Source: Pycnopodia helianthoides
Taxonomy: Eukaryota; Echinodermata; Asteroidea; Forcipulatida; Asteriidae
Assembly (NCBI GenBank): GCA_032158295.1
Contig: CM063257.1
Location: 13,980,332 to 14,044,331 of the forward strand
Direction: 5' to 3'
Length of the DNA stretch: 64,000 nucleotides
Positions within the stretch are counted from its first letter, which is position 1. Each line of letters opens with the position of its first letter. This document shows positions 24,801 to 27,800 of the stretch, one piece after another. The notes below the pieces were generated by a model that worked only from the letters and a program-made list of their open reading frames with translations, was not told the origin of the DNA and searched no databases. Made by a program: the position numbers and the translations under genes.

Positions 24801-27800
24801 GAGGCTGGCTCCCAGGTCTGTGCCTTCATGGGGATCGGTAACAGCGATCAAGATATGCAGCAATTAAACCTGGAAGGCAAGGTAATAAGAAGCATAATAA
24901 TAATAACTAGTTCTTGAATAGCACATTTCACAATAACGTATCAATGCGCTTTACATTAGTGCCCTGGTCATTGGGCCAATAGCATTCCTGTAATCTTTCT
25001 CAGCTCCCTGGGAGTGTACAGCCTTTTGCTGCCGTGGCACTCGGAAGGCTTTTTCATACACAATATCAACCTCTACTGTGCAGGTACCCATTTATACCCC
25101 TGGGTGAAGAGAAGCAATTATAGTAAAGCATCTTGCTCAAGGACACAAGTGTCATGACCGAGATTCGAACCCACACCCCCATGACTCGACCACCAGAACT
25201 TGAATCTGATGCTCTAAACCACTCGGCCATGACACTCTACATGGTGATACATTGCGAATCAGGTTGGCTCAGTCCGTGGTTTCCTTCCCTGCCTACTTTT
25301 CTGACGACTCCAGTTTGAATCCCACCTCAGACTGGAGCCTTACTAGAGCAGCCAACTCTCCAAGAAAGTTCCCTGAAAATAAACCAACCTTTCCATCTTC
25401 TAAGTAACAAATTTGAAAAGGCCGTCTGGCCTTGTGAGTGAGGCCATATCTCATAATTGTAAATTTTTTGTTAGAGACATCTGTATGCTCCAACACCCCT
25501 GATGTATTTTCCTAATCAGCCCTAACCCTAACCCTAATAAGGTAGATTACTAGGGGTTATCAGAACATAAAGTTGTCAAAACATAGGATGTTGGAACATA
25601 GAGCAGTCGCCAAAAAAGACAAACGGTTGGTGAGATGCGCATCTTGGACTCTCAAAATGTCACACTGTGGGCAGACTTGAGCCGCTTGGCAGGATGCTCT
25701 GTGTTTTTTCAGTTGCAAAAGTCCCCATGTAATACGAAAACGGCTTTTCTTAGTTTGACTGATGTTTCTCGCTGTGAAGTACGTGATGATTTGTTTACGA
25801 TATCATGAATGCCCGTCTTTTTCTCTTCAGGATTACTGCGCCGCCAAGACGCTCTACATCTCAGATTCCGATAAGAGGAAACATTTCCTCCTGTCCGTCA
25901 AGATGTTCTACGGGAGCGGAGAGGACATCGGAGTCTTCAACAGCAAACGAATCAAAGTCATTTCCAAACCCTCAAAGAAGAAACAGTCACTCAAAAATGC
26001 TGATTGTGAGTAGTGGAAACTTCGTGTCAGTGCAAAAACGTTGTATCTCCATTTTGCAAAAATGTTGCTCCATTTTGCAGAAACGTTGTATCTCCATTTT
26101 GCGTGGTTTTCCTTTTATATCGTGAGCTAACTCGGTCTGCCATTTTGTGGAGTCAAATTTTTGACTCCACAAAATGGCGACCGTGTTAGTTCGCAAAGTA
26201 AAAGGAAAACCACGCAATTTCGAGGCAAATTTGTGTGGATCATTGTATTCTACTTTTAAAACAATCTTTCTAACCATATGCATTATATAGCAAATGGTTA
26301 CAAATGCTTTTTATAGACCAACTTGCCCGATCCAAGGCAACGTGTACCTTTAAGCAAGTCATTGTGCCAGACATTGTTCAAACCTAACTTTCAGATGACT
26401 TATTAAAACTGGCATATGGGCACTGCATGCGTTGCTACTTATTAATTTGACATTTACTACATGCATAAATAACACTTCATGCTTTCAATTGACACAGCAA
26501 GGACCTCTGTGGTCTTCTTTTTTTGGGGTACAGAACCTACGTATTGAGTCTCATTTGTTGTTTTCTCGTTTTTTGATCTAGTATGCGTTCATTCAGGGTT
26601 AATGGTGGCGCTGCATACATTACTAATGCAAGAAGCAAATATTAAATCATTACTAAATAATGATTTAATATTTACACGCATAAATAATATTTCATAAATG
26701 CTTTCAAATGACACAGCACGGACCTCTCTAGTCTGTTTTCTTAGTACAAAACCTACGTAGTGAATCTCATTTGTTGTTTTCTTGTTTTTGATCTAGTATG
26801 CATTCATTCAAGGTCAACGGTGGCGCTGCATACGTTACTATATAATGATTTAATATTTGCTTCTTGCATAAATGATATTTCATATGCTTTCAAATGACAC
26901 AGCAAGGACCTCTGTGGTCTTTTTTCTTTGTACAAAGCCTACCTATTGAATCTCATTTGTTGTTTTCTTGTTTTTGATCTAGTATGCATTTATTCAAGGT
27001 CAACGGTGGCGCTGCATACGTTACTATATAATGATTTAATATTTGCTACACGCATAAATGATATTTCATAGCTTCAAATGACACAGCAAGACCTCTGTGG
27101 TCTTTTTTCTTTGTACAGAACCTACGTAGTGAATCTCATTTGTTGCTTCTTGTTTTTGATCTAGTATGCATTCATTCAAGGTCAACGGTGGCGCTGCATA
27201 CGTTACTATATAATGATTTAATATTTGCTTCTTGCATAAATGATATTTCATATGCTTTCAAATGACACAGCAAGGACCTCTGTGGTCTTTTTTCTTTGTA
27301 CAAAACCTACCTATTGAATCTCATTTGTTGTTTTCTTGTTTTTGATCTAGTATGCATTCATTCAGGGTCAACGGTGGCGCTGTTCAACCGGCTGCGATCG
27401 CAGACAGTTAGTACGAGATATCTTCACGTTGAGAACAATAATTTCCACGCCAGCTCACAGCAGTGGGGAGCATTCACAATACACTTACGTAAGTCCTGAA
27501 TTCCGTTCTGAACTCGTTTCTGTGGTATCAAGAAAAGTAGATTTGGGGACTTGTGAAAGTCAGTTTGACCTTGTTGACCATAGATACATCAAACCCCAAA
27601 TTAGGCCCCAACCTCAAGGATTTAAAAAACTAGCTACACTTCTGCCGGTGACGGCCGCTCGTCAAATTGGGAAAACTTTGACATAATTTGTGGGATGATG
27701 CTTTGTTATTGCAACAAAGCAGCTCTACAAAACAACATAATATCTGTGATTACGTCCTGGGGCTTTTTCGCAAAAACTTTCTTAAGAGCAGGGTATTCAA

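What the first reader, a model, noticed from the sequence alone, without database searches (positions are those of the whole stretch)
26447..27488. RBPJ exon 6 acceptor amplified five times in tandem, giving four decoy acceptors that lead to stop codons
Seen: five tandem units each keep the T-rich tract, GATCTAG and the first 32 coding bases of exon 6, but only the last continues into the exon. From exon 5, the four upstream sites all run into an in-frame stop within about 29-38 codons (26695, 26895, 27069, 27263). Known: the first good AG after a branch point is often preferred, and such products are usually removed by nonsense-mediated decay or give truncated protein. Inference: the array either lowers RBPJ output, makes a truncated CSL with only the N-terminal Rel-like domain, or is silenced by features I cannot see. 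Coding sequence inside an intronic satellite, with dimer-like subtypes (copies 2/4 and 3/5), is unusual in such a conserved single gene.
Basis: partly seen in the sequence, partly recalled or inferred. Interest (0 to 1): 0.87.

Follow-up and report, generated by a model that had tools for sequence, protein, structure and literature searches.

The report
Five-fold splice acceptor repeat in RBPJ
In what is very likely a starfish genome, the junction in front of one exon of the Notch-pathway gene RBPJ stands five times in a row, giving four extra splice-site copies that lead to stop codons and that the cell would mostly skip; repeats of this kind have been described in amphioxus.

Summary
Five tandem units (26426-27382; 182-215 bp; 83-98% identical) each hold a branch-point-like CTCAT, a T-rich tract, GATCTAG and 32 bases of RBPJ exon 6. 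Only the fifth continues into the exon (27351-27488). RBPJ has a complete frame, one good locus, and is 99% identical to Asterias rubens: very likely a starfish. Arrays spanning an exon/intron boundary are known in amphioxus as 'mirages', where papers say splicing is not disturbed. This is the same kind in another phylum; my searches listed no echinoderm case. Tandem arrays cover 4.6% of 284 kb here, so one array on one of RBPJ's 18 boundaries is near chance expectation. Likely origin: duplication at a short shared sequence, then exchange or conversion. Likely behaviour: exon definition selects the last acceptor, because the decoys lack the rest of the exon and a good nearby donor. No RNA, reads or relatives' DNA were available: decoy use, copy-number variation and any effect on RBPJ output are untested. 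The decoy signals look as strong as the real one, so a regulatory role is not excluded.

The parts
25831..26005 (+). RBPJ exon 5 (donor GTGAGT follows)
26426..26613 (+). unit 1 (188 bp), most diverged (83-86% to the others); decoy acceptor 1 at 26581/26582, extra TACAG acceptor at 26533/26534
26614..26828 (+). unit 2 (215 bp) with a roughly 30-nt insertion; decoy acceptor 2 at 26796/26797
26626..26652 (-). 27-nt inverted copy of sequence of the unit 3/5 type inside unit 2 (exact reverse complement of 26843-26869 and 27211-27237); folds into a hairpin with the unit's own copy
26829..27014 (+). unit 3 (186 bp), 98.4% identical to unit 5; decoy acceptor 3 at 26982/26983
27015..27196 (+). unit 4 (182 bp); decoy acceptor 4 at 27164/27165, extra TACAG acceptor at 27118/27119
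27197..27382 (+). unit 5 (186 bp) with the real acceptor at 27350/27351 and the first 32 bases of exon 6
27351..27488 (+). RBPJ exon 6 (138 nt), donor GTAAGT at 27489
26419..26425 (+). GGCACTG, left-hand microhomology (6 of 7 to GGCGCTG at 27376-27382 in exon 6)
6526..34022 (+). coding span of RBPJ, 10 exons

Best explanation
The five units at 26426-27382 are a tandem array of the amphioxus 'mirage' kind, straddling the intron 5/exon 6 acceptor of what is very likely a starfish RBPJ gene; it likely arose by a duplication at a short shared sequence, and splicing would mostly bypass the four upstream acceptors because exon 6 is predicted to be recognised across the exon, from its own downstream donor. 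Steps: (a) shown: five units, one real acceptor, four decoys with equivalent intronic signals, stops after each decoy. (b) inferred: a ~186-bp piece from GGCACTG (intron) to GGCGCTG (exon) was duplicated in tandem through that 7-base similarity, then amplified and partly homogenised by unequal exchange or gene conversion (units 3 and 5 almost identical, unit 1 the most diverged). (c) predicted, untested: the decoys carry only 32 exon bases, then AT-rich intron, and no good donor within exon range; the last acceptor makes the shortest exon (138 nt against 324-907), so it is preferred, with at most minor decoy use whose products would be removed by nonsense-mediated decay.
For: Anatomy and stops. 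Junction similarity 6 of 7 bases; 71 of 52,000 intron/exon position pairs match that well (the junction was placed after seeing the match, so this is a rough guide). Only 1 of 18 RBPJ boundaries has copies in the 284 kb (the exon-1 donor was set at 6870 there, 6877). Introns are 910-14164 nt and exons 113-352 nt, an exon-definition architecture. The 106 nt after the 32 copied bases are 24-31% GC after decoys against 47% in the real exon. Between 26582 and 27488 no GT donor scores above the real one at 27488 (5.6); the best inside the array score 4.0. Carranza et al. (PMC9225289, human data; [quoted passage not shown] Amphioxus BflGb6 has the same form (end of intron plus start of exon 2, 150-160-bp units, 6 and 3 repeat units in two haplotypes, 81-100% identity), and Adh3 and globin RT-PCR data 'suggest' regular splicing is not disturbed (PMC3087553 passages). 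Decoys 2, 3 and 4 read Arg at a glycine that is Gly in 200 of the 200 RBPJ proteins in which the motif was found, of 211 checked: they do not look kept as coding sequence.
Against: No RNA was available. Decoy signals score 8.1, 8.3, 8.3 and 6.9 against 8.3 for the real site, and two TACAG sites score higher (11.3, 9.5), on a matrix of recalled human frequencies, so intron-side signals do not tell decoy from real. Carranza et al. also say that for 3' sites the preference for the upstream site is 'significantly reduced' under exon definition, not that it is reversed, and that in classical tests the upstream 3' site was chosen. PMC3087553 says that mirage copies could be used as cryptic sites. 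The splice-signal-plus-exon part varies less among the four decoys than the part upstream of it (7 of 62 vs 33 of 117 ungapped columns, Fisher p = 0.0135), which would also fit selection on the decoys. Two donors downstream of exon 6 score above or near its own (27647: 6.7; 27558: 4.6), so donor strength alone does not single out 27488.
Confidence: 0.74

Rival explanations
1. Poison-acceptor regulator: the decoys are used at a set or regulated rate, each use giving a transcript with an early stop, so the array lowers or tunes RBPJ output.
For: All decoys keep branch-point-like, tract and AG signals close to the real one; the splice-signal part varies less than the upstream part among decoys; every decoy leads to a stop 223-791 nt before the exon 6/7 junction, a usual setting for decay (the decay rule is recalled).
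Against: Stops within 40 codons are expected without selection, and conversion from the constrained unit 5 would also keep the 3' part alike (reasoning, not computed); amphioxus cases are said to splice normally; no decoy-derived protein tail was among the 212 proteins held here, from lists cut at 120 of 434 and 120 of 1508 hits (weak, since such proteins may be clustered away or never made).
Confidence: 0.14
2. Truncated CSL: decoy transcripts escape decay and make an N-terminal protein of 370-379 aa with only the LAG1 DNA-binding domain.
For: The break falls right after the LAG1 domain (Pfam 211-341).
Against: No such protein among those held (weak); the early stops lie upstream of four further coding-exon junctions.
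Confidence: 0.03
3. Assembly artefact: copy number inflated or units misordered.
For: Units 3 and 5 are 98.4% identical; no reads could be examined.
Against: The other nine pairs of units differ by 5.5-17%, and unit 2 has its own inverted insertion; the contig is 18.3 Mb long and the array under 1 kb; the DNA search found the array at this place only. The sequencing technology of this assembly is not known to me.
Confidence: 0.05
4. The array is on the way to a new intron or exon, as proposed for amphioxus globins: a decoy exon piece becomes a real mini-exon.
For: Model in PMC3087553 (passages); each unit has a weak donor 23 nt after its acceptor, and units 2-4 also one at 16 nt.
Against: Those donors are weak and neither length is a multiple of three; decoy coding parts have changed (Gly to Arg in units 2-4).
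Confidence: 0.04

Closest known systems
'Mirage' array of amphioxus globin gene BflGb6 (PMC3087553, passages and legends read)
   Same: Tandem duplication of the 3' end of an intron plus the 5' part of the next exon; 150-160-bp units against 182-215 bp here; 6 and 3 repeat units in two haplotypes against 5 units here; 81-100% identity against 83-98%; one authentic junction; many copies keep AG/GT signals; homogenisation inside the array with boundary units left out.
   Different: Starfish, not cephalochordate; a single-copy transcription factor, not a globin. Here unit 1 is left out of homogenisation, but unit 5, with the authentic acceptor, is not (98.4% to unit 3); which end the paper's boundary units are I did not see. 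RT-PCR and haplotype data exist there and not here.
Mirages of amphioxus Adh3 and troponin C (as cited in passages of PMC3087553 and PMC3902484; the original Adh paper is not held)
   Same: Repeat units contain an exon/intron boundary; said not to give aberrant mRNA.
   Different: Adh3 units are 10-72 bp; somatic instability was reported there, nothing comparable tested here.
Lancelet PGBD5 60- and 108-bp tandem repeats over 5' and 3' splice sites (PMC3902484, one passage read)
   Same: Imperfect tandem copies of splice junctions.
   Different: Shorter units, three copies of the 108-bp unit; another gene and phylum.
Competing 3' splice-site tests of Reed and Maniatis (as described in PMC9225289; original not read, its duplicated-site design recalled)
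   Same: Competing acceptors in one intron: this array is a natural version.
   Different: There the upstream 3' site was chosen; here the intron is long and the decoys carry only 32 exon bases, so the opposite outcome is predicted.

Membership tests
'mirage' (tandem array spanning an exon/intron boundary) | Tandem repeat unit contains a splice site with intron and exon sequence on its two sides | tested here: met
   five units, each with tract, AG and 32 exon bases
'mirage' (tandem array spanning an exon/intron boundary) | Only one unit is the authentic junction; the others lie in the intron | tested here: met
   only 27351 continues into exon 6; the protein match 342-388 was listed at that place only
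'mirage' (tandem array spanning an exon/intron boundary) | Concerted evolution within the array with boundary units left out (as seen in BflGb6) | tested here: inconclusive
   units 3/5 98.4%, unit 1 83-86%; but the other end unit (5) is not left out
'mirage' (tandem array spanning an exon/intron boundary) | Copy number differs between haplotypes or cells | not testable with these tools
   one assembly, one place found; no reads
'mirage' (tandem array spanning an exon/intron boundary) | Regular mRNA splicing in spite of the copies | not testable with these tools
   no RNA data
'mirage' (tandem array spanning an exon/intron boundary) | Found in cephalochordates (where reported; not a structural criterion) | tested here: not met
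   RBPJ 99% to Asterias rubens, 95% Patiria miniata, 94% Acanthaster planci
Poison-exon / unproductive-splicing regulator | Regulated use of a site that brings in an early stop | not testable with these tools
   stops shown, use unknown
Poison-exon / unproductive-splicing regulator | Conservation of the element across species | not testable with these tools
   states that this genome has no relatives here
RBPJ/Su(H)/CSL gene | LAG1 DNA-binding, BTD and TIG_SUH domains | tested here: met
   on the A. rubens orthologue P0002; the window's protein is 99% identical to it; PDB matches are RBPJ/Su(H)/LAG-1 (10 sequences)
Recursive splice site (ratchet) | AG directly followed by a donor GT | tested here: not met
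   all five read AG|TATGC

The most novel reading that the evidence does not exclude
The array is a length-tunable splicing brake on the Notch effector RBPJ: each added unit adds a competing acceptor with a stop behind it, so minisatellite copy number, which can change by unequal exchange in the germ line or soma, sets how much full-length RBPJ each allele makes. At the same time the decoys act as donors of missense changes (such as the invariant-Gly-to-Arg codon of units 2-4) into the real exon by gene conversion.
Probability: 0.08. Interest if true: 0.8.

Novelty: new member of a known kind. Interest (0 to 1): 0.42.

Why it matters
It carries the 'mirage' phenomenon, described in amphioxus in the papers I found, to what is very likely an echinoderm and to a single-copy developmental regulator. 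It is a natural competition among five near-equal acceptors that differ in what lies downstream, so RNA from this starfish would show directly whether exon context or order decides 3' splice-site choice. If copy number varies between animals, it gives an allelic series of the same test.

Tried and rejected
Amphioxus origin: my first idea, from the mirage papers; rejected when RBPJ matched starfish. Mitochondrial genetic code as a taxon test: no COX1 match in the assembly. Species: not settled; A. amurensis assemblies of about 0.48 and 0.49 Gb are in print (abstracts), but nothing here proves that species. Recursive splicing: rejected, no AG|GT. (exon 5 against solved structures, 0 matches) was sent one base out of frame, so it means nothing; the 502-aa protein gave 10 matches. 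Search for a decoy-derived protein tail: none seen (one search scanned six short motifs in the 212 proteins held, from lists cut at 120 of 434 and 120 of 1508). Regional survey for more mirages: 220 kb next to the window was fetched and scanned for arrays and long open frames; I could not map enough exons there, so prevalence is unknown. Literature: ten searches. Six bear on repeats or duplications at splice sites (5, 6, 12, 45, 55, 68); 55 (starfish) and 68 (sea urchin) found no paper; one (echinoderm, intron gain, tandem duplication) listed four papers that I did not read, so a case inside them is not excluded. The library lacks most subscription journals.

Full report
What is there. Window 26426-27382 holds five head-to-tail units of 188, 215, 186, 182 and 186 bp (TRF 26650-27382, period 186, 92% matches). 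Each ends with CTCAT, a T-rich tract, GATCTAG and 32 coding bases of RBPJ exon 6. The acceptors' first exon bases are 26582, 26797, 26983, 27165 and 27351; the fifth continues into exon 6, 27351-27488. Read from exon 5, the first four meet stops at 26695, 26895, 27069 and 27263.

The gene and the organism. Ten coding exons from 6526 to 34022 give a complete RBPJ frame. A protein search with the 502 residues from exon 2 onward finds Asterias rubens Su(H) at 99% over the full query, then Patiria miniata 95% and Acanthaster planci 94%. In this genome (479 Mb, 742 contigs) RBPJ gave 11 matches: the 10 exons at this locus and one weak 43% match on contig C715. The array DNA matched only here. Both searches score only their best candidates. 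The host is very likely an asteriid starfish; the species is not settled.

More than chance? The array itself is far beyond chance. That an array lies on a splice junction is not: arrays of period 20 or more cover 4.6% of the 284 kb examined (54 merged arrays; 7.5% of the window), and with this array left out random placement gives a probability of about 0.55 that at least one of 18 RBPJ boundaries is hit (0.39 for arrays of 300 bp or more). One of 18 is what was found. What is notable is that the copies keep working-looking signals in front of an exon of a highly conserved gene.

How it arose (inferred). The unit's left edge in the intron follows GGCACTG and its right edge in the exon is GGCGCTG, 6 of 7 bases alike; 71 of 52,000 intron/exon position pairs match that well, though I placed the edge after seeing the match. 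A tandem duplication through that similarity is the simplest origin. Unit 1 is the most diverged (83-86%). Units 3 and 5 are nearly identical, and the likeness at a lag of 368 bases runs back into unit 2 to about 26774, so exchange or conversion has acted between units, including the one with the real acceptor. Unit 2 holds a 27-nt exact inverted copy of unit 3/5-type sequence, as a template switch would leave, which folds into a hairpin.

The decoys as coding sequence. Units 2, 3 and 4 read Arg where unit 5 reads Gly. This Gly is present in 200 of 200 fetched RBPJ proteins in which the motif was found; 11 of the 211 checked did not show the motif. Unit 1 has three changes and unit 3 one more, each of which changes the amino acid. 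The decoys thus do not look kept as protein, and conversion of the Arg codon into unit 5 would likely be harmful.

The decoys as splice sites. On a matrix of recalled human frequencies the decoys score 8.1, 8.3, 8.3 and 6.9, the real site 8.3; each has CTCAT with its A 27-29 nt upstream and no AG in between. Two further sites, TACAG at 26534 and 27119, score 9.5 and 11.3 and would stop translation at once. Intron-side signals therefore do not explain how the last site would be chosen. Exon-side context could: after the 32 shared bases the decoys continue at 24-31% GC, the real exon at 47%; the real exon ends in a GTAAGT donor 138 nt on, whereas decoy exons would be 324-907 nt. With introns of 910-14164 nt the gene has the architecture for exon definition, in which sites closest across the exon are preferred in human data (PMC9225289, abstract and passages). 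The same source says that for 3' sites the upstream preference is reduced, without saying that it is reversed, so the prediction is moderate. Two donors past exon 6 score above or near its own (27647, 27558).

A result that cuts the other way. Among decoys 1-4 the branch-tract-AG-exon part varies at 7 of 62 ungapped columns and the part upstream at 33 of 117 (p = 0.0135). This could mean selection on the decoys, or refreshing by conversion from the constrained unit 5. The numbers are small and the units related.

What is known. Tandem arrays over exon/intron boundaries were named mirages in amphioxus Adh3 and reported in its globins, troponin C and PGBD5. The papers say or suggest that they do not disturb regular splicing, while noting that the extra sites could be used; copy number differed between the two haplotypes of BflGb6 (PMC3087553 and PMC3902484, passages). 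BflGb6 is nearly the same design. None of the searches that bear on this listed an echinoderm case by title or abstract start; the four papers listed were not read. So this is a new member of a known kind, in a new phylum as far as I found, and in a key single gene.

If a decoy were used, the product would hold the N-terminus and the LAG1 domain only (Pfam 211-341 of the A. rubens protein; exon 6 matches from residue 342), 370-379 aa, with the stop 223-791 nt upstream of the exon 6/7 junction, a likely decay target. No protein with a decoy tail was seen among those held, which is weak evidence. RNA is the decisive missing datum.

Noticed in passing
26092-26224: Inverted repeat with 46-nt arms, 80% complementary, in the same intron upstream of the array; looks like a short hairpin element.
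   Followed up: partly
26031-26102: A second small tandem array (24 bp x 3.1) begins 26 nt after the exon 5 donor, so intron 5 carries arrays near both ends.
   Followed up: partly
21952-22652: 54-bp unit repeated 13 times in RBPJ intron 2; with a period divisible by three it gives long open frames on both strands.
   Followed up: no
1762-2453: 33-bp AT-rich unit repeated 21 times, with what looks by eye like an internal palindrome.
   Followed up: no
17624-18264 and 36184-36679: Arrays of 228-bp and 180-bp units, 2.8 copies each, one inside the 14-kb RBPJ intron 1 and one after the coding end.
   Followed up: no
31173-31240 and 20089-20163 (minus strand): tRNA-like matches inside RBPJ introns, perhaps parts of tRNA-derived repeats.
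   Followed up: no
L020, L022, L023, L024 (in G000:C15:14194332-14244331 and near): Several long open frames with the same opening residues (by eye a RING-type start), and other frames in the fetched 220 kb that look like retrotransposon parts (by eye, not tested).
   Followed up: no
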